Assembly (NCBI RefSeq): GCF_001891165.1 | Contig: NZ_LKKW01000009.1 | Coordinates: forward strand, 1 to 42,244 | Length of the DNA: 42,244 bases | Source of the DNA: Streptobacillus ratti | GTDB lineage: Bacteria; Fusobacteriota; Fusobacteriia; Fusobacteriales; Leptotrichiaceae | Reading direction: 5' to 3' | In this document: positions 1 through 42,011 of the stretch, in pieces | Layout: the number at the start of each line of letters is the position of its first letter | How positions within the stretch are numbered: position 1 is the first letter of the stretch | The notes under the pieces: generated by a model | Databases searched by the model: none | Told to the model about the DNA's origin: nothing | The model's input: only the letters and a program-made list of their open reading frames with translations | Translations under genes and position numbers: made by a program

Positions 1-35
1 TCTCTACTTTTTAAAAATTTTTCTATTGTTTTCAT
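1..35 (-). CDS. Start of a second copy of the 428-aa companion gene (partial)
   Basis: Only the first 11 codons are inside the window; the reading is MKTIEKFLKSR. This matches the first residues of the next gene (MKTIEEFLKSR) at all but one position, and 34 of 35 bases are identical to 1308-1342. The same AGAGG ribosome binding site precedes both starts. The gene therefore looks like a tandem paralogue of the putative CDI companion/immunity protein, 20 bases after that gene's stop and on the same strand. Function is inferred only from position beside the CdiA-like gene. Confidence 0.7.
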   Translation of the reverse strand, partial: MKTIEKFLKSR

Positions 36-55
36 TGCTTATACCTCTATTTTTA

Positions 56-1342
56 TTACATAAATCTCCATAAATTTACATAAAATTTTGTTTCATCTTT
101 TTTTACAACTTTTTCTTTTATCTCTCCTTTATTTGATAGCTCTTCTAAACAATAATGTAATTTTCCTTTTTCTAATTCTGTTTCATATAGCTTAGAGTAT
201 GTTAATAAATGTTTCCCATTTTTATATGAATAATAGATATTAAAATCTGTATTTCCATATTCATCTTTTACAAAGCCTATTACCTCAATCTCATCTCCAT
301 CAAATTCAAAATGTGAAATATCTTCATATTCTCCACTTGGTGTCTTGTAATATACTTCTTCTGATGAGTCTGATAAATAGATTATATAATCTCTAATTTT
401 TTCTTTATCTTTAATTATAGTTTTTCTTGTTGTAAGTTCTACTAATTCATATACTTTTATTTCTTCTATTGACATATCTAATTCTTCTAAATACTCATCA
501 AAATTAAAATTATCTTTTCCACTTAATACATGTGCTACATATTTATCAATTGCCTCTACTGGATTAAGTAATCTTTTAGGTCTTTCATAATCTCTATTTC
601 TTATTACATATATATCTCCATATTTTATATCTTCAAATACAAAAAAAGCATAATCATTATCATTCTTTTTTTCACTATATACATTAGTATTCATAAAAGT
701 ATATAGGTATTCTGCATTAGCATCTTCTGTATTTAAAAGTTTTGAAAAATATTTAGTATATGATTTTATTACTTCTATTCTTCTTTTCTTTTTAATTCCT
801 ATTTCTTCTAAATATCCATCTAAATTATCCCATTCAGATGATGATTTCGGTAAATTTCTAAATCCTGCGTCATATCTATCATATGGAAAGCCTATTCCTA
901 AAAATTCACAGTAATATGAATATGATAATTCTTTAGGTAAGGAAACACATCTCCCAAGTCTCCATTTTTCAAAATTTTTCTGACCTGGATTTTCACCATA
1001 GAATTTTCTATCTAAAATTAATGCTTTACCATTTAATTCAAAAGCTAAAAAATCCTCATATATTTCTGTTCCATATTTCAAATAGTTTTTATCATTTACA
1101 CCATACATTAAATTTTTTGCATCTTTTAAAACCTCATATGTTCTTGGTTGATATTCTTTAATGTATCTAAATAGTCTTTCTAATCCAAAATCATCAGATA
1201 AAGGAGTTATTAAATCTGTTGAATATCCTATAGTTCTGTCACGTGTATATATCATTTTTTTTATGTGTTCTGGTATTTCTGAGAAATTCCTACATATTCT
1301 GTATTTTTCTCTACTTTTTAAAAATTCTTCTATTGTTTTCAT
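56..1342 (-). CDS. Companion (possible immunity) protein of the CdiA-like toxin
   Basis: A 428-residue soluble protein with no signal peptide or membrane segment; I do not recognise the family. It starts 26 bases after the stop of the CdiA-like gene, the place where a CDI immunity gene normally sits. It is much larger than usual CdiI proteins (about 100-180 residues). Two stretches look alike: around residues 173-182 (NLDGYLEEIG) and 280-289 (NFDEYLEELD). Each follows a strand-rich segment with acidic and aromatic residues, so an internal duplication is possible. The second half, with GDIYVI, faintly recalls SUKH/SMI1-type immunity domains, but this is a guess. I chose the ATG at 1342 rather than the GTG just before it, because the paralogue at 1-35 keeps the ATG but has GCA instead of GTG. 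The AGAGG site is 8 bases upstream. Confidence 0.6.
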   Translation of the reverse strand: MKTIEEFLKSREKYRICRNFSEIPEHIKKMIYTRDRTIGYSTDLITPLSDDFGLERLFRYIKEYQPRTYEVLKDAKNLMYGVNDKNYLKYGTEIYEDFLAFELNGKALILDRKFYGENPGQKNFEKWRLGRCVSLPKELSYSYYCEFLGIGFPYDRYDAGFRNLPKSSSEWDNLDGYLEEIGIKKKRRIEVIKSYTKYFSKLLNTEDANAEYLYTFMNTNVYSEKKNDNDYAFFVFEDIKYGDIYVIRNRDYERPKRLLNPVEAIDKYVAHVLSGKDNFNFDEYLEELDMSIEEIKVYELVELTTRKTIIKDKEKIRDYIIYLSDSSEEVYYKTPSGEYEDISHFEFDGDEIEVIGFVKDEYGNTDFNIYYSYKNGKHLLTYSKLYETELEKGKLHYCLEELSNKGEIKEKVVKKDETKFYVNLWRFM

Positions 1343-1361
1343 CACTTATACCTCTATTTTT
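1308..1361. repeat. 54-bp direct repeat covering gene starts (other copy at 1-54)
   Basis: The ribosome binding site and first codons of the 428-residue gene are repeated at positions 1-54 with three mismatches. The repeat marks the boundary of a tandem gene duplication that continues beyond the left window edge. Confidence 0.8.
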
Positions 1362-1368
1362 TAAAATT

Positions 1369-4300
1369 TTATTTCTTATTATTAGTTAAACTATTGTTTT
1401 TTAATTCATTTATATAATCTTTTATATCCTTTTTAGCTTTTTTCTGTAAATTATCAATAAGATTTTTAGCATCTTTATTTATAGGTTTGCCTTTAAATGT
1501 TGTAAATCCAGGATAAATTTTTTCATCATTTGCTTTTACTACAGTTTTATTGTTTTTTGATGAATTTTGACTAGCTGTTATATACATTATATTTTTAGAA
1601 TAACGTTCAACTTTTTTCTTATCAGTAGCACTTAATAATTTATATTCATCTAATTTTTTTATTTCACTTAAAGGAAAAATATGATCGGCAGTTACATCTC
1701 CTTTAAAAGTTGATAAATCATATAAATATCCTGTAACAGAATCTACTACTGAACCTGGAAAAACACCAGCTTTATAACCTGGATTTTTAAAATTTCTTCC
1801 ATTTTCACTGACTCTATTAGCTTTAAAATCATCATATTCTTGAAAATAATTTTTATAAATATAGCCTTCTAATTCCTTATCTCTAAATTCTGATAAATTA
1901 ATTTTATTATTTTCCGATATTTTATTAATGATAGATTTTTCAGGTTTAATATTTATATTTTCATCTATTTCATTTACTAAATTAGTTTTACCATTTTTAT
2001 TTTTAGCAATAATTTCTGTAGATTTAATATTTATATTTTTATCTATTTCATTTACTAAATTAGTTTTACTATTTTCAACTTTCTTTTTAGCAATAGTTTC
2101 TTTAGATTTAACATTTATATTTTCATCTATTTCACTTACTAAATTAAACTTGCTATTTTTATCTTTCTTATTACTAATAGTTACTTCAGGTTTAATATTT
2201 ATTTCTTTATCTGTATTATCTAATGTATTGTTATTAATAAAAGTAGGCTTAGGTTTACTAAAATGTAATTTAATAAACTCATTAATATATTGTGTAGATT
2301 CAAGTGATATAAGATTTATTCCTTGAATTATAGAGCTTTTTTCTTCTAATTTATCTAGTGCTGTCTTTTTAAATTCATATGACTGTGTTCTTTCTTTAGT
2401 CGCTTCTATATATGCTAATTCATTATATCCTAATGAACTTTCTTTAAGTCCTAATATAATATTAGAAATCCCTCTATATGTATCATTTGCACCAAATAAT
2501 AAATTAGAAGAACCATGAGCAATTAAAGTTCCACTATAACTTATTCCAAATCCTGATGGTATCATATAAGCACCAGCAGTTAATGAAGTTGCTCCTCCAG
2601 CTATTCTACTTGTGCCTTGAATTGTATCTAGCAAACCATAAAGTATTTGTTGATTTTTATTACTATTAACAAACTTAGCGTCTTCTAAAGTAGCTCCTAA
2701 TCCTCTACCCACTTGTAGCCCTTGTCCACTATATATTTTTGAATAAAGGTCTATGGCAGGTATTTTAGAATTAATAGATTTAAATGTTACTGTATCTCCA
2801 CTATTATATTTCATTTGTAAATAATTTAAATATCTATTCTTATATTCAGATTTTAATATTTCATTAAAATATTTTTTTTCTTCTGAATTCATTGTAGTTT
2901 TAAATTCTAAGAGATTTTTAGGGGCGTCCATTTCAGAATCTTTTTTATACTTTAATTGACCATACATTACTGATGTTGGGTCATACATTTCATAGTTTTT
3001 CTTGTTCCTGTTAAATTTTTTCAATACTATATTTTTTAATTTATTTCTATTCTCTAAAGTATCTGAAACAGTACCTATATTTTCTAAAGTATTTACACTG
3101 CTTATTGAATCACTAATAACTTTATCAACTTTTGGTATATTAGAATCTACTTCTAATTTCTTTTTATCTTTATCTCCTTTTGTTATATAACTTGAATAAA
3201 TTTCTCCAAAAGTTGCACCTAATAATTTATTATCTACATTTTTACCTTGTTTATTTATTATTACTTCTCTTATTAATAATTTTTTAAACTCTAATTCACT
3301 TAAGTCTTTTAATAAATGTAGATTTTTATCATCTCCTACAAATCCTGTTATAGAGCCATTTAATTTATCTTTAACCTCTTTTTCTCTATCTTTTACTACA
3401 TCAGATTCTTTTTCAAGTTCTGATACTATTAACCCTAGACCTAATTTTTCTGATAAAGCTATTCTTTCTTCTTTAGTTTTTGCTGATAATTCATTTAATA
3501 AAGAAACTTCTTTAGAATATTTAGCTTCTATATGTTTATCCTTTATTTCTAAATATCCTCTATTTTCTCTTTCAGATATATCTATTAATTCATCAGTTTT
3601 AGTTCCTATTAAACTTAATTTATCTTTTATTGCTTTACCCGTAGATTTCAATTCTTCTTTTGCAACATTAATTTTATCTTTAAATGCTTCTGGATTTTTA
3701 AGAGCATTTATTACATTAGAATTTAAATCTAAACCATAGTCCCCTATTCTACCTTTTACACCTGATGTACCAGCTTTTAATGAAAAATCTACATTATATT
3801 TATTAGCTTTTTCTTCCTTTAAAGTTAAATTGTCTACTTTTAAATTAGACAAGTCTAAATTATTCTTATATACATTTTCATCTCTTTTAGCTACTAAATC
3901 TACTTCTGCATTACCACCTGTAGGTACACCAGTTGGCGATATAGAGATATCAAACCCTACTCCTACTTTATTTACAGTTTTTTCATCTTTTACTTCTTCT
4001 ATATTTAAATTAGATATATTTCCTTTTATAGAAGAATTTTTACTTATAACCCCTTTTAAAGAGGCATTTTTTACATTAATATATTCTTCATTTGAATTTA
4101 TTAATTCATTTAATGAATTTATTTTATCTTTTTTTACTTCATAACTACCTTTAGCACCTATATCAATATTACCTAATGAAATTTTAGCTTTTTCTGTATC
4201 GACTTTAGCACTTACTCCAATTTTTACAGAAGCATCAATTGTTTCTTTTTTGTTCTCTGCTACAAGTACATCTTTTTTTACATTTTCAACATTGTTATAT

Positions 4301-7300
4301 ACTACATTACTATCTTGTATTACTGTAGATGTATAGTTTACTTCTTTATTATTATTGAAAACTAATTTTTTACCTGATAATGTATTTCCTTTAACTTCTT
4401 CTTTATGAGATAATATTGTCTTGTTTGATAAATTTAAACTTAAATCAGTTCCGACATTTAGATATCCACTTATATTACTTTTTACTTCTCCAGTTTCAAA
4501 ATCTTTTGTAGTTGCAACTCTATTATCTACAGTTAAATTACCAGCTAAATTATTTACTGCTCCTACATATCCATTAGCTCCATTAGAAATAGCTTTATCT
4601 AAGCGACCCTCTAATACATTTCCTACAGCTTTACCCATAGTTAATATATCTCTTGCTACAGGCGAACCAACATTTAAATTTGTCCCTAAATTTATCCCTG
4701 TTATATTTTCTTGGCTATCTATCGTATCTTTTATGGCTCTAAAGTTAGCTTTATTTGAATTTATTTCTAATTCATCATATTTTAAGTTTACATTAGTTAC
4801 ATCAAATTCATTATTTACAACTGCTTTACCTTTTAATAATAAATTAGTATTATCATGTGTTTTTGAATCACTGATTATATTCTTATTTTGTATTTTTAAA
4901 CCTAAACCAGCATTTGAATCAACAGCACCTACACTACCACTAATATCTAATTTACCATAATATTTATTTTCTCTGACTTTATTATTTAATTCTTGTGTTT
5001 TTACATTAAGATTTTTAATAGTAGCATTATTTAATTCTACATTAGAACTTAATATATCCAAATTTTCTATGTCAGCTTTTTCTTTTACTAAGATATTTGA
5101 TTTAATATTCTTATTATATGAATTATCTTTTTTAATTATCTTATGATAGAATAAAGAAATATTTCCATCTACTTTTAAATTATCTTTATCTAAATTTCCA
5201 TTAACACCATCTACTAGATTAAAAGTTTCAACTTTTTGTTTTATTTTACTATTTATTACTCTTGATTGTATATTTAATTTATTTACTTTTAATTTATCTG
5301 CTTCAATATTTGAACCATCTACATTTAAAGTATCTGCCTTAATATCTTTTACTAATATATTTGAACTAGAGTTTTCTTCATACCCTATATTTGTATCTTC
5401 TTTGTATAAAATATTATTACTTTTTTTAATGTACTCATTATTAAGTATTTCTGATTTAACAGTTAAATTCTCAGCATTTAATGTATCAGATTTAATATCA
5501 GAACCCTTAATAACCGCATCAGTTTTATTTAAATTAATATTTTTAGAATTGATTGTTGTCTTATTATTTTTTTCATTTCTATATATTTCATTCTCTTTAT
5601 TTGAAGCTGTTCTTAATTCATTAGTATCTTTAGTCTTTTCTCCTGTAATCAATAGCTTTTGACTATCTATATCAACATTATTTTCTACATCTATATTTGC
5701 TGATGAAATAATAACATCTTTTGATTTAATATTTAAATTTTTAGAATTAATCATTGTATTATCTACATTTTCGTTATTTGATAATACACTTGCATGATTA
5801 TCTGTTAAAAGAGATTTGTTTGTTGTTTTTTCGCCTTTTATTTCTAATTTATCTGATGATATATTAATATCTTGTTTAGCTGATAATTCTCCTGAAAATA
5901 CTGTATTTTTAGCATCAATTTTTACATTATTCCCTTTAAGAGATGATTTTTTTAAGCTTTCATATTCATTTAAAAATTCTTTTTTATCACTTACTAAATA
6001 TGTTCTATTATCCTCTACTATTGATTTAACCAATACATTATCTGATTTAATATCTAAATCCTCAAGTGCTTTTAAATTGGCACCCTCTATTACTAAATTA
6101 TTACTTGATAACCTTATATTATCAAATAAAAGCTTTTGGTCTTTAATATTTAGATTCTTTGCATTAATTGATATGTTTGATTTTCTAGGCTTTTCTTCTT
6201 CTATTTCTTCATTTCTTTTATCTTGTATAGCAAACTCTTTTATTAAATATCTATTATTACTATTGTATTTTATATTATTTAAAAAGTATGGATTATTTAA
6301 AAAATTCGATAATTTTACATATTTTGGATTATCTTCTATACTATATTCTAATACCTTACCATTTATTTCTATCTTCTCTTTATTATTTACATATCTTTCA
6401 TCTTCTTCTCTTAAAGTCTTTTTACTCTCATCTTCACTATATGCTTTAAAGTTTACATTATCTGCACTAATGTTAATGTTTTCTCCTTTAATATGTGATG
6501 GAAGAGCTTTAACATTTACTTCTCTATCATTACCTAAATCTCTGATATATGTTGCATTATGTAATATATTACAATAAACTAATCCTCCAGGACATTTAAA
6601 AGACCCATCAAATATCATCTTTTCATAACCATCTTTAACAGTTACTTTTTCATCACTAATACTAGATGAATTATTGTATGTATTAGCCTTTATTTTATTA
6701 TCTTTATTTGCAATTATATGTCCATCTTTATTATTAACTGTGTCATCTGTATCTATATAAACATTATTTCCACTTAATACTGAAAAGCTAGTATTTGCAT
6801 CAGAATTTTCTACATATCCTTTTAGCAATATATTTTTTTCACTTTCCTCTAAATAGTTATCAGAATTTTGAGAATACATAGCATCTTTATTTAATTTTTT
6901 TATTTCTTCAATTTTATCTTTTTGTAATATTTCACTATCACTTAAATCAAAAAATATTCCTTTTTTACCTTCTCTACCTTTATTCTTTAGTATAATTTCA
7001 TGCTCTTTTAATACTCTCCAATCAAATTCTGTTTTATCTATTTTAACTACTTCATCATAGAAAGAAGATAAAGCATTATTTTTAGCTTCATTAGTTCTTG
7101 ATAATATTCCTGCATTGTATGACACATAAGTTTCTTTTAAAGTCTTTTTCCAGGCATCTATATTATCTATTATTTTATTATTTTTATCCTTATATCTAAC
7201 TTTAAAATTACCATAAGAATTAACTCTACCAACATTGTCTAAATTCTTACTCTTTATCTTTAAGTTATTGTCTGCATGTATTATTCCACCATTAATATTT

Positions 7301-8229
7301 GTAACTTTTTCTTTAGCCCTTAACTCTATATTATCACTTAATAAAATATTTCCATCATTTTTTATATTCCTAGCTTCTATAGTAATAGTGTTATTCGCTA
7401 CTATCTTATCCTTATTATTAAAATCTTCTTCTACTTTAACATTTAAATTTTCTGTCTTTATACTATCTATATTTGCCTGTACCTTTGACTCTAATGTTAA
7501 ATCTTTTGAATTTATTGACTTAACACCTATCCCCGATTTTGTTGCTACTATCTTTATTACATCTCCATGTACAGATCCTATTATTTCTGCACTAAGTAAT
7601 GTCCCATCTTCTCCTGCATAAGTCTTAACTAATAATTCTTTTGCATCTATATCACTTTCTGCCTTAAACTTATTTGCTATTATTTCTAACTTTTCTACAT
7701 TCTCTCTTGTATTTAATTCTTTTAATGTCTTAATATCTCCACTAGGAATACCATATTCTTTTAACTCTCCATTTTCTAATATAGGGCTTGCTCCTACTAA
7801 AGACATTTTATGTATATTTAAAAAACTTGCACCGTCTAATGTAATTCCATTTGGATTTGAAAGTATTACATCAAGTTTATCTTTACTTAATGCCTCAAGT
7901 ATTCCACTTAATTTACTTTCATTTATCCCTGTTACATTTAACAGTGCAAGTTTTGCTCTCTCTTCTTTTATATTCTTATTTCCATTTACTAATCCAGCTA
8001 TTCTACTTCTAGCTATATTTTTTGCATTATTTATTACTGCACCCTTTTCACTTACATTAAAATCAGTAAAAGTAGAGTAAGAAACTCCTTTAGGTGATGG
8101 TGTTGAAATATTTATTACATCTACACCATTATTGCTCTTTTCTACATATACATTAGTCGTGCCATCTACTTTAATGTTTGCAAACGAAAAAAGGCTAACC
8201 ATTAAAACTATACCAATAAATTTCTTCAT
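1369..8229 (-). CDS. CdiA-like filamentous haemagglutinin exoprotein with C-terminal HNH nuclease
   Basis: A 2286-residue two-partner-secretion exoprotein. Residues 1-20 are a signal peptide (MKKFIGIVLMVSLFSFA). The TPS haemagglutination-activity domain follows, with the NPNGI motif and a GASFLN segment. Then comes a long array of haemagglutinin-type beta-helix repeats rich in Asn, Lys, Ile and Asp (LNIKS, NVDIDS). Near residues 1865-1940 there is a hydrophobic, Gly-rich segment typical of the region before a polymorphic toxin. Three to four 26-29 residue repeats follow. The last ~130 residues carry DHIFPLSEI (His about 2183) and a later N-x-x-Y-I-T-A-S-x-N-S-S-K-x-N-K stretch, as in HNH/GmrSD-C-like nucleases. 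The likely role is contact-dependent inhibition by delivering a nuclease to neighbouring cells. The start at 8229 has AAGGA nine bases upstream; the ATG at 8238 abuts that site and is rejected. No TpsB/CdiB gene is adjacent, which is odd. Confidence 0.85.
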   Translation of the reverse strand: MKKFIGIVLMVSLFSFANIKVDGTTNVYVEKSNNGVDVINISTPSPKGVSYSTFTDFNVSEKGAVINNAKNIARSRIAGLVNGNKNIKEERAKLALLNVTGINESKLSGILEALSKDKLDVILSNPNGITLDGASFLNIHKMSLVGASPILENGELKEYGIPSGDIKTLKELNTRENVEKLEIIANKFKAESDIDAKELLVKTYAGEDGTLLSAEIIGSVHGDVIKIVATKSGIGVKSINSKDLTLESKVQANIDSIKTENLNVKVEEDFNNKDKIVANNTITIEARNIKNDGNILLSDNIELRAKEKVTNINGGIIHADNNLKIKSKNLDNVGRVNSYGNFKVRYKDKNNKIIDNIDAWKKTLKETYVSYNAGILSRTNEAKNNALSSFYDEVVKIDKTEFDWRVLKEHEIILKNKGREGKKGIFFDLSDSEILQKDKIEEIKKLNKDAMYSQNSDNYLEESEKNILLKGYVENSDANTSFSVLSGNNVYIDTDDTVNNKDGHIIANKDNKIKANTYNNSSSISDEKVTVKDGYEKMIFDGSFKCPGGLVYCNILHNATYIRDLGNDREVNVKALPSHIKGENINISADNVNFKAYSEDESKKTLREEDERYVNNKEKIEINGKVLEYSIEDNPKYVKLSNFLNNPYFLNNIKYNSNNRYLIKEFAIQDKRNEEIEEEKPRKSNISINAKNLNIKDQKLLFDNIRLSSNNLVIEGANLKALEDLDIKSDNVLVKSIVEDNRTYLVSDKKEFLNEYESLKKSSLKGNNVKIDAKNTVFSGELSAKQDINISSDKLEIKGEKTTNKSLLTDNHASVLSNNENVDNTMINSKNLNIKSKDVIISSANIDVENNVDIDSQKLLITGEKTKDTNELRTASNKENEIYRNEKNNKTTINSKNINLNKTDAVIKGSDIKSDTLNAENLTVKSEILNNEYIKKSNNILYKEDTNIGYEENSSSNILVKDIKADTLNVDGSNIEADKLKVNKLNIQSRVINSKIKQKVETFNLVDGVNGNLDKDNLKVDGNISLFYHKIIKKDNSYNKNIKSNILVKEKADIENLDILSSNVELNNATIKNLNVKTQELNNKVRENKYYGKLDISGSVGAVDSNAGLGLKIQNKNIISDSKTHDNTNLLLKGKAVVNNEFDVTNVNLKYDELEINSNKANFRAIKDTIDSQENITGINLGTNLNVGSPVARDILTMGKAVGNVLEGRLDKAISNGANGYVGAVNNLAGNLTVDNRVATTKDFETGEVKSNISGYLNVGTDLSLNLSNKTILSHKEEVKGNTLSGKKLVFNNNKEVNYTSTVIQDSNVVYNNVENVKKDVLVAENKKETIDASVKIGVSAKVDTEKAKISLGNIDIGAKGSYEVKKDKINSLNELINSNEEYINVKNASLKGVISKNSSIKGNISNLNIEEVKDEKTVNKVGVGFDISISPTGVPTGGNAEVDLVAKRDENVYKNNLDLSNLKVDNLTLKEEKANKYNVDFSLKAGTSGVKGRIGDYGLDLNSNVINALKNPEAFKDKINVAKEELKSTGKAIKDKLSLIGTKTDELIDISERENRGYLEIKDKHIEAKYSKEVSLLNELSAKTKEERIALSEKLGLGLIVSELEKESDVVKDREKEVKDKLNGSITGFVGDDKNLHLLKDLSELEFKKLLIREVIINKQGKNVDNKLLGATFGEIYSSYITKGDKDKKKLEVDSNIPKVDKVISDSISSVNTLENIGTVSDTLENRNKLKNIVLKKFNRNKKNYEMYDPTSVMYGQLKYKKDSEMDAPKNLLEFKTTMNSEEKKYFNEILKSEYKNRYLNYLQMKYNSGDTVTFKSINSKIPAIDLYSKIYSGQGLQVGRGLGATLEDAKFVNSNKNQQILYGLLDTIQGTSRIAGGATSLTAGAYMIPSGFGISYSGTLIAHGSSNLLFGANDTYRGISNIILGLKESSLGYNELAYIEATKERTQSYEFKKTALDKLEEKSSIIQGINLISLESTQYINEFIKLHFSKPKPTFINNNTLDNTDKEINIKPEVTISNKKDKNSKFNLVSEIDENINVKSKETIAKKKVENSKTNLVNEIDKNINIKSTEIIAKNKNGKTNLVNEIDENINIKPEKSIINKISENNKINLSEFRDKELEGYIYKNYFQEYDDFKANRVSENGRNFKNPGYKAGVFPGSVVDSVTGYLYDLSTFKGDVTADHIFPLSEIKKLDEYKLLSATDKKKVERYSKNIMYITASQNSSKNNKTVVKANDEKIYPGFTTFKGKPINKDAKNLIDNLQKKAKKDIKDYINELKNNSLTNNKK
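1921..2190 (-). repeat. In-frame tandem repeats before the toxin domain
   Basis: Three units of 26-29 residues plus a degenerate fourth lie within the CdiA-like gene. The core is K-x-N-L-V-N-E-I-D-E-N-I-N-I-K. DNA similarity between units is high, for example ACTAAATTAGTTTTA occurs twice. The units form a charged linker directly upstream of the HNH nuclease domain and could vary in number by slippage or recombination. Confidence 0.75.
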
Positions 8230-8259
8230 AAATACCATTCCTTTTTAACTTGTTGTTTA

Positions 8260-8462: not shown

Positions 8463-10850
8463 TTATAACCTCACATATCTCATTCTCATTGCATTTAAAA
8501 CTGTAAGTATCGTAACACCAACATCGGCAAACACTGCAACCCACATAGACATAAAATTAAAAATTCCAAATGTGATTATTATTAATTTTATTGAAATAAT
8601 GAATAATAAATTTTGAAAAACTATCATTTTCATTTTATTTGAAATTTTCTTAAGAACTGATATTTTAGTCAAACTATCTGTATTTAAAACTATATCTGCC
8701 GTATTTATAGTAATGTCTTGACCCATATTCCCCATAGCAACTCCTACATCAGCTACTGCAATAACAGGTGCATCATTAATTCCATCTCCTACAAACAATA
8801 TATGTTTATCTTCTTTTTCTTTAAGTAAAATATCTAATTTATCTTGTGGTAATAGATTTGAATATATTTTATCTATACCTAAAATATTCCCTACTTCTTT
8901 AGCAGAGTCTAAATTATCTCCAGTAAGCATTACTACTTCTTTAATACCTACATGTTTCATTAAAGCAATAGCTTCTTTTGTATCATCTTTTATTTTATCC
9001 TTAATGACAAATAAGGCAACAAAAATATTATCTATAGCAACATAAACTAAAGAAGAATTTTTGTCATTCATAAAATTTATTTGAGGTATATATATATTTC
9101 TATCTTCTAACATTTTTTTCTTACCTATTAATAAATCTCTATCTTCAAATTTAACACTTAATCCAAGTCCTGCAATCTCATCAATTTCTACTATTTTCTT
9201 ATTTTTAGAAAATTGATTTTTCAAACATATTTCATCATGGCTATGTGATTCACATTCACATTTTTCATTATCTTGTAATTTTTTAACATGATTTTTACAT
9301 TCATCACCATAATAATGACCTTTAGGTTCATGTTTTTCTATTTTAACATCTTTTGTTTTATAATGTTCTGAATAGTCATGGCAACAACCACAGTGTCCAC
9401 ATAAACTAATGTATTCATAAAATTTTTCTTCATCTTCTATACTATCAACTAATCCAAACTTTTTATTTATAAAAGAGATTATTGATTTTGCTATAGGGTG
9501 ATTAGAATTTTCCTCAGCCTTATATATATACTCATAAACTTCTTTTACATCTATATCTATTTTTTCTAAATCTTCAAAAACAGAATTAACCTTAAATTTT
9601 CCCTCTGTTATAGTTCCTGTTTTATCTAGGAAGACACTATCAATTTTATCTATATTATCAAATATATCTGCACCCTTAATTAATATTCCCTCTTTGGCTG
9701 CTCTACCAATACCTGAGAAAAAAGTAAGTGGTATAGAAAGAACCAATGCACAAGGACAAGCTATAACTAAAAGTACTATACCACTATATAGTGAGTCCAT
9801 AAAACTTATTTTCTTAAAGAAAAGTGGTGGAACTATAGTTATAAATATAGCTAAGGTAAATATTATTGGTGTATAATATCTTGAAAATTTAGTAACAAAT
9901 TTTTCCATTTTAGATTTATTATGCCCTGAATTTTCTATCATTTCCACTATCTTATATATACTACTTTCATCAAAGCTTTTACTTGCCTCAATTGCTAAAG
10001 TTTTAGTTAAATTTATCATACCAGCTAATACTTCATCATCTTTTTCAAAATATCTAGGAAGTGATTCACCTGTTATCATAGAAGTATCAATATCTGCACT
10101 ACCTATATATATCTTACCATCTAACAATATTTTTTCTCCTGGTTTAACATAAAAAATATCTCCAGCTTTAATTAAATTAACATCAACATCTACAAACTCA
10201 TTTTTAGTTTCATTTAAAATATGTACTTTATTATCATTTAAATCTATTAAACTTCTAATACCTTTTCTTGATTTTAAAACGGAATATTCTTGGAAATATT
10301 CTCCTAATGTATAAAATAGCATTACTCCTGTTGCTTCTTCATACTCTCTAATAAATATAGCTAATAATGATGCTACCATCATAAGTACCTTTTCATTAAA
10401 ACAATCTCCGTTTTTTATTGATTTAATAGCATCTTTAATAATAGGAAATGCAACTATAGCATAAGCAAATATGTAAAGAGGTACATAGTATAAATAAAGT
10501 TCTGAATCATATTTTAAATACATGTATAAATATTTATCAACAAATAGTGCAAAGATAAATAAAATTAGTGATATAAACATGTGTATTTTTTGATCTTTTA
10601 ATTCTTCTATTTCTTCTAAAAATTGAACTTCAGATTTATTCTCTAATTTAACATCAAAAGACATTTCCTTTTTTCTACCATATTTTACTAGTTCTTCAAT
10701 ACTATTTTCATTTTCAACATTAAAATCTACAACTAAACTCTTAGTTGAAAAATTTATACTCAAATTCTTAACATTATCGTGCGTTTTAAGATGTTCTTCT
10801 AACTTACTAGCACAACCAGCACAATCAAGCCCACATACTGTATATTTCAT
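8463..10850 (-). CDS. zntA: Zn/Cd/Pb-type P1B ATPase (ZntA/CadA-like metal exporter)
   Basis: A 795-residue inner-membrane ATPase that expels soft divalent metals. Visible in order: an N-terminal HMA domain with the metal site C-A-G-C, the TGES actuator loop, the transmembrane metal site CPCALVLSIP, the phosphorylation motif DKTGT, the SNHP nucleotide-binding motif and GDGINDAP. In the last membrane helix the motif ADVGVTILTVLNAMR is present. An Asp-Val-Gly there is typical of the P1B-2 (Zn/Cd/Pb) subgroup rather than of copper pumps. Residues about 482-540, inside the ATP-binding domain just after SNHP, form an unusual insert with 8 Cys and 8 His, beginning LCGHCGCCH. The ATG at 10850 was chosen because GAGGTG lies 8 bases upstream; the GTG at 10859 overlaps that site. 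The gene has its own promoter and terminator. Confidence 0.9.
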   Translation of the reverse strand: MKYTVCGLDCAGCASKLEEHLKTHDNVKNLSINFSTKSLVVDFNVENENSIEELVKYGRKKEMSFDVKLENKSEVQFLEEIEELKDQKIHMFISLILFIFALFVDKYLYMYLKYDSELYLYYVPLYIFAYAIVAFPIIKDAIKSIKNGDCFNEKVLMMVASLLAIFIREYEEATGVMLFYTLGEYFQEYSVLKSRKGIRSLIDLNDNKVHILNETKNEFVDVDVNLIKAGDIFYVKPGEKILLDGKIYIGSADIDTSMITGESLPRYFEKDDEVLAGMINLTKTLAIEASKSFDESSIYKIVEMIENSGHNKSKMEKFVTKFSRYYTPIIFTLAIFITIVPPLFFKKISFMDSLYSGIVLLVIACPCALVLSIPLTFFSGIGRAAKEGILIKGADIFDNIDKIDSVFLDKTGTITEGKFKVNSVFEDLEKIDIDVKEVYEYIYKAEENSNHPIAKSIISFINKKFGLVDSIEDEEKFYEYISLCGHCGCCHDYSEHYKTKDVKIEKHEPKGHYYGDECKNHVKKLQDNEKCECESHSHDEICLKNQFSKNKKIVEIDEIAGLGLSVKFEDRDLLIGKKKMLEDRNIYIPQINFMNDKNSSLVYVAIDNIFVALFVIKDKIKDDTKEAIALMKHVGIKEVVMLTGDNLDSAKEVGNILGIDKIYSNLLPQDKLDILLKEKEDKHILFVGDGINDAPVIAVADVGVAMGNMGQDITINTADIVLNTDSLTKISVLKKISNKMKMIVFQNLLFIISIKLIIITFGIFNFMSMWVAVFADVGVTILTVLNAMRMRYVRL

Positions 10851-39270: not shown

Positions 39271-39645
39271 TTAAAATACATAATTACTCAATATTAGATT
39301 TTTATTAAAACCCTCCAATTTTTTCATTATCTCTATGTATTTTATAATATACTCTACTTTCAAGTTACCTATTTCTTTATGCAACGCTTTCTTATATATT
39401 ATCGCCTGTTTATGAACTCTAATATACGATAATTTATTAAGATTTAATTTTGGATATTTTTCAGGATCTATTTCTATATCATATTCTGGATTAAAATATT
39501 GTTTTTTAGTTATTGTTGAAACAGGCAATATTATGCAATCATTATCAGTTTCTCCTATAACTAAAACTGGTCTTTCTTTAAGTCCTTTTCTTTTAGTCCC
39601 TATATCAAAATAAGGAAAAAGTGCAATAAACATTTTACCTATCAT
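39271..39645 (-). CDS. PemK/MazF-like toxin
   Basis: A 124-residue small protein resembling PemK/MazF endoribonucleases. It has GKMFIALFPYFDIGTKRKGLKERPVLVIG (the RPVLVI strand with likely catalytic Arg25) and CIILPVSTITKK with Thr/Ser residues where MazF has its catalytic Thr. The C-terminal half is helical. Such toxins cut mRNA at short motifs. Its start overlaps the upstream Panacea-domain gene by four bases (ATGA), the usual layout of a toxin-antitoxin pair with the antitoxin first. No clear terminator follows. Confidence 0.75.
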   Translation of the reverse strand: MIGKMFIALFPYFDIGTKRKGLKERPVLVIGETDNDCIILPVSTITKKQYFNPEYDIEIDPEKYPKLNLNKLSYIRVHKQAIIYKKALHKEIGNLKVEYIIKYIEIMKKLEGFNKNLILSNYVF

Positions 39646-40130
39646 TTTTCATCTCCCTCATAATCTTTAAATTCATCACAATACATGTCCCAATAAGTAT
39701 CATAAATTCTTTCTTTTTTCTCAAAAATTAAACTTACATCTATATTATTTACACCCCTTTCATTTTCTAATAATCCTTTTCTTGCAATCTTCCACGCTCT
39801 TTCTTTATGTGTTAGATTAATAAGTTTACTTGAAGAATAAAAACCATATTTAACTATAACATTATTAATTATATACTTATTAAAAGTTTTTAAATTACAT
39901 TTTTTTCTATAAATTCTCCTATTCTTATACTCATTCCTTACCTTAATAGATACTGGTCCTAATCTCCAAGCTTTCATTTTTTCACTAAATAATAAATTTC
40001 CTGTATAAAGTATAGATTCTTTTTGTGTGAAATATATAAGCTTTTGTAATTTTAGTTCATCTATATTTTCTCCATATATTTCCCTATATCTTTTTGCAAT
40101 AAATCTCGCAACCTCAATAATTTTTTCCAC
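39642..40130 (-). CDS. Panacea-domain antitoxin (SocA/DUF4065-like)
   Basis: A ~162-residue protein with the Panacea fold: ARFIAKRYREIYGENIDELKLQKLIYFTQKESILYTGNLLFSEKMKAWRLGPVSIKVRNEY. The L-x-L-Q-K-L-x-Y motif and the F-x-x-x-x-x-A-W-x-x-G-P-V segment are diagnostic. These proteins neutralise many unrelated toxins by direct binding. A charged C-terminal extension (about 110-162) may be the toxin-specific part. Start: an ATG at 40151 overlaps the -10 box, so I prefer GTG 40130 preceded by GGTGG, but this is uncertain. It is coupled to the PemK-like toxin by ATGA overlap. Confidence 0.8.
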   Translation of the reverse strand: MEKIIEVARFIAKRYREIYGENIDELKLQKLIYFTQKESILYTGNLLFSEKMKAWRLGPVSIKVRNEYKNRRIYRKKCNLKTFNKYIINNVIVKYGFYSSSKLINLTHKERAWKIARKGLLENERGVNNIDVSLIFEKKERIYDTYWDMYCDEFKDYEGDEK

Positions 40131-40149
40131 TACATCACCACCCATTAAC

Positions 40150-40178
40150 ATTATATCCTATAAATTAAAAAAAGTGAA
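40150..40178 (-). promoter_or_regulatory. Promoter of the toxin-antitoxin pair
   Basis: On the minus strand TTCACT (40173-40178), 17 bases, TATAAT (40150-40155). The start would be near 40143, which argues against translation starting at the ATG at 40151. Confidence 0.5.
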
Positions 40179-40287: not shown

Positions 40288-40821
40288 TTAAAAAGTATAA
40301 CCCAATTCTAATCCTGTTATAACTTTATCTTCATAACCACCAAATAAAGCAATGTTATATTTATTTAATAATTTAATCCCTAAAGAACTTTTATATACTG
40401 GAGCAACATTCGCTTCCACTTTTTTATATATAATTCTACTTTGACTAACAAATATTCCCATTCCTAATTCTACTCCACCATAAACTTTAATATTATTATC
40501 AATAGAATAATTAACTTCTCCTTTAAGTCCTAAATTAATAGCAGCTCTTCCATATAGATTAGACTCATTTTGACTACGTGAAAACCCTCCTGCTAAAGAA
40601 ACTTTTGGTCCAAATGTAAAATCTACTTTTTTAGACACCTTTTTTTCATATTCTACCATTGCACCTACAGAAACAAAACCATAATGACTATATCCTCTAA
40701 GACTTTCTTTATTTCCTATGGCATAATAAAAAGCTCCCTCAAGCCTATATCTTTCATCTGCATTTTTGGAAAAACTCATCAAACTTATAGACATTAAAGT
40801 TATTAATAAAATCTTTTTCAT
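40288..40821 (-). CDS. Outer-membrane barrel paralogue (third in array)
   Basis: A 177-residue exported protein with a signal peptide (about 1-19, SLMSFS), then RYRLEGAFYYAIG, the conserved strand KKVDFTFGPKVSL, GEVNYSIDNNIKVYGGVELGMGI and the C-terminal GLELGYTF. The terminal Phe and alternating strands mark a small outer-membrane barrel of eight strands or so. It is the most divergent of the three complete copies; the conserved DFTFGPK and NIKVY-GVELG strands place it in the same family. Function unknown: adhesin, porin-like or antigen. Confidence 0.7.
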   Translation of the reverse strand: MKKILLITLMSISLMSFSKNADERYRLEGAFYYAIGNKESLRGYSHYGFVSVGAMVEYEKKVSKKVDFTFGPKVSLAGGFSRSQNESNLYGRAAINLGLKGEVNYSIDNNIKVYGGVELGMGIFVSQSRIIYKKVEANVAPVYKSSLGIKLLNKYNIALFGGYEDKVITGLELGYTF

Positions 40822-40843
40822 CCTTTTTACTCCTTAATTCTTA

Positions 40844-41461
40844 CTAAAATGTATATCCTAATTCTATTCCAAATAGTCCCTTAGGATTTGTAGCATAATT
40901 TCCTACATAAAGTCCTACGTTATATCTATCTCTTATCTTAATCCCTCCAGATAGTTTACCTATAACTGCTACATCAAATCTTAATTTGTAAGAATTATTA
41001 TAATCTTTCAAATATATTAAATAACCAATTCCAGTCCCTACTTCTAATCCACTATATATCTTAACCTTTTCTTTAACTTTATAGTTAAAATCAACTTCCA
41101 TTCCTAAAATTAAGCTAGGTGTTATGCTTGTTAGTTCTGTTCCATTTAATACACTATCTAAAAAAGAAAGACTTGTAGTAACTTTAGGTCCAAATGTAAT
41201 ATCAAATTTTTTATTAATATCTGCTTTCCATTCTGGCAATATTGCTATAGATAATGTTGTTGTTTTTAAACTTCTACTATTTGTTTTGCTAAAAACTCCT
41301 AAAGATCCATCTACTCTATATCTTGGTCCAGTTATTTTAACACTTTTATTATTAGAGTTTGTAGTAGAAATCCTATTTTTATTTTGTTTTGGCTTATTTA
41401 CCTTACTTGGAAATGAAATTAATCCAGCAATAAATATTATTAATAATAGTATTTTTTTCAT
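40844..41461 (-). CDS. Outer-membrane barrel paralogue (second in array)
   Basis: A 205-residue exported protein of the same family. After the signal peptide (about 1-17) there is an extra Lys/Asn/Ser-rich spacer (KVNKPKQNKNRISTTNSNN) absent from its neighbours. Then come GPRYRVDGSLGVF, EWKADINKKFDITFGPKVT, VDFNYKVKEKVKIYSGLEVGTGIGY and the C-terminal FGIELGYTF. It begins 16 bases after the preceding barrel gene, with AAGGA before the ATG. A 37-base stretch is identical to that gene, pointing to recent duplication or recombination. Confidence 0.72.
   Translation of the reverse strand: MKKILLLIIFIAGLISFPSKVNKPKQNKNRISTTNSNNKSVKITGPRYRVDGSLGVFSKTNSRSLKTTTLSIAILPEWKADINKKFDITFGPKVTTSLSFLDSVLNGTELTSITPSLILGMEVDFNYKVKEKVKIYSGLEVGTGIGYLIYLKDYNNSYKLRFDVAVIGKLSGGIKIRDRYNVGLYVGNYATNPKGLFGIELGYTF
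41184..41220 (-). repeat. 37-bp identical block shared by adjacent barrel genes (other copy 41794-41830)
   Basis: The block encoding NKKFDITFGPK is identical at 41184-41220 and 41794-41830, and similarity continues for about 20 more bases. It provides a substrate for recombination between the two genes. Confidence 0.85.
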
Positions 41462-41477
41462 ATGTTATTCCTTTCTC

Positions 41478-42011
41478 TTAAAATGTATATCCTACTTCTA
41501 AACCTAATATCCCTTTAACATTTCCTGTATAAAGTGCTAAATTAACTTTTTCATCTAATTTTATTCCTAATGCAACCTTACTTATTGATGTAATTTCAGG
41601 TCCATGTACATGATTATCATCACTTATGACAAACACTCTAAATCCTAAACCTACCCCTGCTTCTACAGAGGCATATAACTTAACATTATTTTTTACCTTG
41701 TAATTAAAATCTACCTCTCCACCTAATATTGCACTAGGTTTTACTACAGGTATATTAGGCATATAAAAATTAGTTTCAACATTTAATGTCCCCTTAGGTC
41801 CAAATGTAATATCAAATTTTTTATTAATATTTACTTTCCATTCTTGTAATAGTGAAATAGAGTTTGAAACAGATTTATATGTTCTTAAATTATTGTAATT
41901 TTTAAAATCCATAGCTCCTACTGCTAACTCTACTCTATATCTTGGTCCACTAATATTAGATGCAAAGGCACTTACTCCTATAATTGATAATACTAGTAAT
42001 AACTTTTTCAT
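41478..42011 (-). CDS. Outer-membrane barrel paralogue (first in array)
   Basis: A 177-residue exported protein with a signal peptide (about 1-17, GVSAFA), then GPRYRVELAVGAM, EWKVNINKKFDITFGPKGT, GEVDFNYKVKNNVKLYASVEAGVGLG and the C-terminal LGLEVGYTF. It is the best-expressed position of the array: a near-consensus promoter lies about 30 bases upstream and AGGAG stands 8 bases before the ATG. Family and function are as for its neighbours, an outer-membrane barrel of unknown ligand. Confidence 0.72.
   Translation of the reverse strand: MKKLLLVLSIIGVSAFASNISGPRYRVELAVGAMDFKNYNNLRTYKSVSNSISLLQEWKVNINKKFDITFGPKGTLNVETNFYMPNIPVVKPSAILGGEVDFNYKVKNNVKLYASVEAGVGLGFRVFVISDDNHVHGPEITSISKVALGIKLDEKVNLALYTGNVKGILGLEVGYTF

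What the first reader, a model, noticed from the sequence alone, without database searches (positions are those of the whole stretch)
1..1342. Tandem, oversized companion genes behind the toxin
Where a small immunity gene is expected there is a 428-residue gene, and a second copy starts 20 bases later with 34 of 35 bases identical at its start. Each copy keeps the same ribosome binding site. Inside the protein, NLDGYLEEIG and NFDEYLEELD suggest an older internal duplication. A large, duplicated, non-secreted companion family would be an unusual immunity solution, or a different component of the CDI system.
Basis: partly seen in the sequence, partly recalled or inferred. Interest (0 to 1): 0.6.

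Follow-up and report, generated by a model that had tools for sequence, protein, structure and literature searches.

The report
Oversized, duplicated immunity gene beside toxin
Behind a large secreted protein that seems to carry a DNA- or RNA-cutting toxin for killing rival bacteria, this Streptobacillus genome has a family of unusually long, duplicated genes that are most likely the antidote, and a sister species keeps the antidote although its own toxin gene is gone.

Summary
The gene and the start of its tandem copy are real: a 428-aa ORF at 56-1342(-), and 20 bases after its stop a second start codon, with 34 of 35 bases identical and a shared ribosome-binding site. Position 1 is a contig end, so copy 2 is cut by the assembly. 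The claimed internal duplication is not supported. A third copy starts at the end of contig C25, behind a TpsA stub. S. moniliformis has two complete copies (88% and 69% identical). Both lie behind TpsA stubs, with no toxin in that genome, yet they are under purifying selection. Distant relatives (32%) in Leptotrichia lie without any TpsA beside Tdi1 and YezG immunity genes. In another Streptobacillus, the slot in front of TpsB holds unrelated membrane or secreted companions, at one locus beside a lipase-like toxin end. The window's toxin end instead has an HNH nuclease-like motif and is basic; its companion is acidic and cytosolic. Best reading: a new CdiI-type immunity family in a Burkholderia-order (A-I-B) CDI-like locus, kept as orphan immunity elsewhere. 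It is longer than published BcpI proteins (44-301 aa). Its fold is unknown; the models failed. Binding and protection are inferred, not shown.

The parts
56..1342 (-). Companion gene, copy 1 (428 aa, pI 5.3, no signal peptide or membrane segment); proposed immunity gene
1..35 (-). Start of companion copy 2, cut by the contig end; 34 of 35 bases identical to copy 1
36..54 (-). Ribosome-binding region of copy 2, shared with copy 1
1343..1361 (-). Ribosome-binding region of copy 1 (AAAAATAGAGGTATAAG)
1369..8238 (-). TpsA/CdiA-like exoprotein gene, 2289 aa, N-terminal TPS domain
1372..1899 (-). C-terminal toxin-like region (176 aa, pI 9.4) with HNH-type motif DHIFPLS...NIMYITASQNSSK
1894..2212 (-). 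Imperfect repeats of about 78 bases in the linker before the toxin-like region

Best explanation
The 428-aa gene encodes the immunity protein (CdiI role) for the nuclease-like C-terminus of the adjacent TpsA, in a contact-dependent-inhibition-like locus with Burkholderia gene order: TpsA, immunity, then TpsB. The acidic cytosolic protein would bind the basic HNH-like toxin when siblings deliver it and block its active site or substrate site. Tandem duplication gave at least two copies here and there is a third behind a TpsA stub. Elsewhere the gene is kept as orphan immunity after loss of the toxin (S. moniliformis) or inside an island of immunity genes (Leptotrichia). Shown: the copies, positions, homologues, stubs, neighbours, selection and charges. 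Inferred: toxicity, binding and protection.
For: Position: the gene starts 26 bases behind the TpsA stop. The S. moniliformis locus reads TpsA stub, companion, TpsB (ShlB, PF03865 E = 1e-14). In the window's own genome the corresponding flanks are present: C25 ends in stub plus companion start, and C29 begins with the last codons of TpsB. Slot logic: in another Streptobacillus (G003) the genes upstream of TpsB are unrelated companions, those measured all with a strongly hydrophobic N-terminal or membrane segment; at one locus (C112) the TpsA end is lipase-like. The companion here has none, and its TpsA ends in an HNH-type motif found nowhere else among about 303,000 residues of six-frame translation held here. 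Charge: companion pI 5.3, toxin region pI 9.4. Retention without toxin: S. moniliformis has no match to the toxin region but two intact copies with dN/dS 0.28-0.32 against the window gene. Guilt by association: Leptotrichia homologues lie in an island with Tdi1-type genes (PF08906, E = 2e-20) and, in L. hongkongensis, a YezG-like gene (PF04634, E = 6e-35), with no TpsA near. The companion follows the toxin end, not the TpsA body: G003 TpsA proteins are 72-76% identical at the N-terminus but G003 has no homologue.
Against: The intact toxin with this companion is seen only once. No family database, PDB sequence or usable structure ties the protein to a known immunity fold. It is longer than published BcpI proteins (44-301 aa, PMC3415462). 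The toxin activity rests on a motif. TpsB beyond copy 2 is not in the assembly, and no VENN-type pretoxin model matched.
Confidence: 0.74

Rival explanations
1. The companion is a cytosolic accessory of the two-partner system (a chaperone or modifying enzyme for TpsA export), not an antidote.
For: Same operon position, large size, no known immunity fold; Burkholderia loci can carry an extra gene (bcpO) in this region (PMC3415462).
Against: G003 TpsA proteins, 72-76% identical at the N-terminus, have no homologue; S. moniliformis keeps it under purifying selection with only TpsA stubs matched; Leptotrichia homologues lie without TpsA among immunity genes.
Confidence: 0.1
2. The companion is an immunity protein, but for another toxin: an orphan immunity gene that ended up behind this TpsA by recombination, while the true antidote lies in the missing sequence between copy 2 and TpsB.
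For: Orphan immunity genes are common at CDI loci (PMC9086364); S. moniliformis and Leptotrichia keep homologues with no toxin found beside them; the sequence behind copy 2 is missing.
Against: It is the first gene behind the toxin end, 26 bases from the stop, and its acidic, cytosolic character suits a basic nuclease.
Confidence: 0.12
3. The protein contains an acidic DNA-mimic domain (DMP12-like, residues 273-383) that works on DNA-binding proteins or on the nuclease by mimicry.
For: Weak Pfam match PF16779, E = 0.034; acidic C-terminal part, pI 4.8.
Against: 14.6 bits against a cut-off of 27; not seen in the other four members.
Confidence: 0.04

Closest known systems
BcpI/CdiI immunity proteins of Burkholderia-type CDI loci (bcpAIOB / cdiAIB)
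   Same: Gene order A-I-B; immunity gene directly behind the exoprotein gene; variable between loci; cytosolic partner of a nuclease-like C-terminus.
   Different: 428 aa against 44-301 aa, mostly about 100 (PMC3415462); gap of 26 bases against 11 or less in nearly all Burkholderia loci; no (E/Q)LYN or VENN boundary detected; tandem copies; Fusobacteriota.
Orphan cdiI genes and polyimmunity loci
   Same: Immunity genes kept without their toxin; islands of unrelated immunity genes, as seen for the Leptotrichia homologues (PMC9086364, PMC3482391).
   Different: In Streptobacillus the remnant beside the orphan is the TpsA N-terminal stub, not a toxin C-terminus as in the orphan CdiA-CT/CdiI modules described in PMC9086364.
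EsaG tandem immunity paralogues of the S. aureus type VII system (PMC9484751)
   Same: Tandem copies of an immunity gene against a nuclease toxin, with conserved blocks that allow recombination between copies.
   Different: Unrelated secretion system; no sequence link was tested; only 35 bases of copy 2 are visible here.
SUKH (SMI1/KNR4) two-domain immunity proteins of Leptotrichia
   Same: Similar length (about 365-420 aa) and, in one genome, tandem arrays.
   Different: Profile comparison with the companion family gives no signal.

Membership tests
CDI system (two-partner secretion, Burkholderia order A-I-B) | CdiA/TpsA exoprotein with N-terminal TPS domain | tested here: met
   PF05860 E = 1e-23 at residues 21-298; TIGR01901 E = 1e-12
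CDI system (two-partner secretion, Burkholderia order A-I-B) | CdiB/TpsB partner in the same locus | tested here: inconclusive
   Present behind the companion in S. moniliformis and in G003 behind other companions. In the window's own genome only the last TpsB codons appear, at the start of C29; whatever follows copy 2 is not in the assembly.
CDI system (two-partner secretion, Burkholderia order A-I-B) | Variable C-terminal toxin region behind a conserved body | tested here: met
   C-terminal 176 aa unmatched in 95 other Fusobacteriales genomes, while the N-terminal 433 aa match G003 and S. moniliformis at 64-80% over the longer hits; a G003 locus has a lipase-like end.
CDI system (two-partner secretion, Burkholderia order A-I-B) | Pretoxin boundary motif (VENN, (E/Q)LYN or similar) | tested here: not met
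   No pretoxin model matches the protein and no VENN or (E/Q)LYN motif stands before the toxin region (read from the sequence); a repeat linker stands there instead. Boundary motifs vary between groups (PMC9086364).
CDI system (two-partner secretion, Burkholderia order A-I-B) | Contact-dependent inhibition of bacteria lacking the immunity gene | not testable with these tools
   needs a competition assay
CdiI/BcpI immunity protein | Gene directly behind the toxin-bearing gene, in the same direction | tested here: met
   26-base gap, same strand
CdiI/BcpI immunity protein | Binds and neutralises the cognate C-terminus | not testable with these tools
   only charge complementarity (pI 5.3 against 9.4)
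CdiI/BcpI immunity protein | Size within the published BcpI range (44-301 aa, PMC3415462); a usual, not a strictly defining feature | tested here: not met
   428 aa; 427, 433 and 487 aa in homologues
SUKH / SMI1-KNR4 immunity superfamily | Sequence-profile match to SMI1_KNR4 (PF09346) | tested here: not met
   No Pfam match; no PF09346 match in this genome; hhalign against single- and double-SUKH sets gives probabilities of about 3% or less
DMP12 DNA-mimic protein | Match to PF16779 over its curated cut-off | tested here: not met
   14.6 bits against a cut-off of 27, E = 0.034, in one of five members only
HNH nuclease (toxin region) | DH...N...N/H core motif | tested here: met
   DHIFPLS...NIMYITASQNSSK; only match among about 303,000 residues of six-frame translation
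HNH nuclease (toxin region) | Match to a curated HNH-family profile | tested here: not met
   No HNH profile in Pfam, NCBIfam or PADLOC matched the region

The most novel reading that the evidence does not exclude
The protein is a two-part antidote: an N-terminal and middle toxin-binding region joined to an acidic C-terminal domain (residues 285-428, pI 4.8) that mimics nucleic acid and occupies the nuclease's substrate site. It would then be an oversized immunity fold unrelated to those described for CDI and able to cover several nuclease toxins.
Probability: 0.1. Interest if true: 0.65.

Novelty: new member of a known kind. Interest (0 to 1): 0.45.

Why it matters
It adds an undescribed, unusually large immunity family to CDI-like systems. 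It also gives a Fusobacteriota case of the A-I-B gene order, in which the gene between TpsA and TpsB seems to change with the toxin end. The genus offers a natural series: toxin plus antidote, antidote without toxin, and other companions. That makes the retention of orphan immunity between related species directly testable.

Tried and rejected
SUKH membership: rejected by profile comparison. DMP12: too weak. Internal duplication: rejected. Wider homologues: none in the 96 Fusobacteriales searched apart from Streptobacillus and Leptotrichia, none credible in 389 genomes sampled across the domain, none in the GTDB contigs beyond L. hongkongensis, none in viral contigs or plasmids. Weak hits in G029 (phage capsid) and G035 (aminotransferase) were read and dropped as chance. 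PADLOC hits of the Leptotrichia homologue are short and weak. The toxin region has no plasmid or PDB relative.

Full report
WHAT IS THERE. The window is the beginning of contig C9 (G000, 1.43 Mb in 146 contigs). Minus strand: a 2289-aa TpsA-like exoprotein (1369-8238) with a TPS secretion domain, then 26 bases, then a 428-aa gene (56-1342), then 20 bases, then a new ATG whose first 35 bases match the first gene at 34 positions and share its ribosome-binding region. The contig ends there, so the second copy is real at its start but cannot be read further. The proposed internal duplication is within chance.

COPIES IN THE SAME GENOME. The start sequence occurs once more, at the very end of contig C25, behind an 84-aa remnant of a TpsA N-terminus. 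C25 and C9 end at the same base of the shared sequence, which suggests that both run into one collapsed repeat (inference). Contig C29 begins with the last codons of TpsB followed by the regulator gene found at that place in S. moniliformis, so a companion body and TpsB probably lie in the C25-C29 gap. No second full body and no complete TpsB was found in the assembly. C25 is 99.4% identical to S. moniliformis over 1.3 kb, against about 90% at the neighbouring regulator gene, which suggests recent exchange at this locus (inference).

SISTER SPECIES. G001 has a chromosome of 1,662,578 bases, the size published for S. moniliformis 9901T (PMC3035246). It has two full copies: one behind an N-terminal TpsA stub and in front of TpsB (L024), one behind a 157-aa TpsA stub (L025). 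A third TpsA stub (265 aa) is followed by a TpsB fragment. No match to the toxin region was found in that genome. The copies are 88% and 69% identical to the window's protein with dN/dS 0.28 and 0.32, so the protein is still maintained.

THE SLOT. In a third Streptobacillus genome (G003), with TpsA N-termini 72-76% identical at the best-covered loci, the genes in front of TpsB are different: a 317- plus 173-aa pair at C112 and a near-copy at C92, three genes at C242, two membrane proteins at C287. All of these carry a strongly hydrophobic N-terminal or membrane segment. At C112 the TpsA C-terminus is lipase-like. G003 has no homologue of the 428-aa protein. The window's TpsA instead ends in a basic region (pI 9.4) with an HNH-type core, DHIFPLS...NIMYITASQNSSK, and its companion is acidic (pI 5.3) and without any hydrophobic segment. 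The gene in the slot thus seems to match the compartment where the toxin would act. Compartment and toxin activity are inferred from sequence, and only one G003 locus shows both a readable toxin end and its companions.

DISTANT RELATIVES. Three Leptotrichia genomes (one is L. hongkongensis) have a 32% identical protein of about 487 aa (broken in L. hongkongensis) in an island with Tdi1-type immunity genes and, in L. hongkongensis, a YezG-type one, with no TpsA. This is the polyimmunity arrangement described in PMC3482391. No relatives were found elsewhere.

HOW IT PROBABLY WORKS. A sibling delivers the TpsA C-terminus, and the cytosolic 428-aa protein binds it and blocks the nuclease. Tandem copies could widen or raise protection, and recombination between near-identical copies could reshuffle them, as argued for EsaG (PMC9484751). 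All of this paragraph is inference.

COMPARISON. The gene order is that of Burkholderia CDI loci (PMC3415462, PMC9086364). The protein is larger than the published BcpI range and matches no known family. The TpsA lacks a recognised pretoxin motif, so I call the locus CDI-like rather than a tested CDI system.

LIMITS. The intact toxin with this companion is seen once. Structure prediction failed, probably for lack of homologues. Neither toxicity nor neutralisation is shown.

Noticed in passing
L023 (G000:C25:10000-20684), 9389-10685: 1.3 kb at the end of C25 (acid phosphatase, TpsA stub, companion start) is 99.4% identical to S. moniliformis while the neighbouring regulator gene is about 90% identical: likely recent exchange between species.
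   Followed up: partly
L089 2869-4472, L024 8521-10260, L025 9462-11276: S. moniliformis 9901T has three TpsA N-terminal stubs; two of them break off at almost the same place (after NPNGIT...FLN), each followed by a companion gene, which suggests a preferred recombination point.
   Followed up: partly
L094, L118, L119, L120, L126 and other G003 contig ends: Another Streptobacillus genome carries about ten TpsA/TpsB loci or fragments at contig ends, with membrane or lipoprotein-like companions in the slot in front of TpsB.
   Followed up: partly
L024 7386-8495: The TpsB is short (369 aa) with only a partial, sub-threshold POTRA match; possibly a reduced form of the usual transporter.
   Followed up: no
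window 1894-2212: Imperfect repeats of about 78 bases in the TpsA gene just before the toxin-like region, where a VENN-type boundary would be expected.
   Followed up: no
L061, L075, L084 (G032:C1:1775645-1784115): Leptotrichia has tandem arrays of SUKH proteins of about 365-380 aa; other Leptotrichiaceae have related two-domain forms.
   Followed up: no
window 39642-40151: 169-aa protein that reads like a SocA/Panacea-type (DUF4065) antitoxin domain; recalled from memory, not tested.
   Followed up: no
window 40288-42011: Three tandem paralogues of small outer-membrane-protein-like genes (177-205 aa).
   Followed up: no
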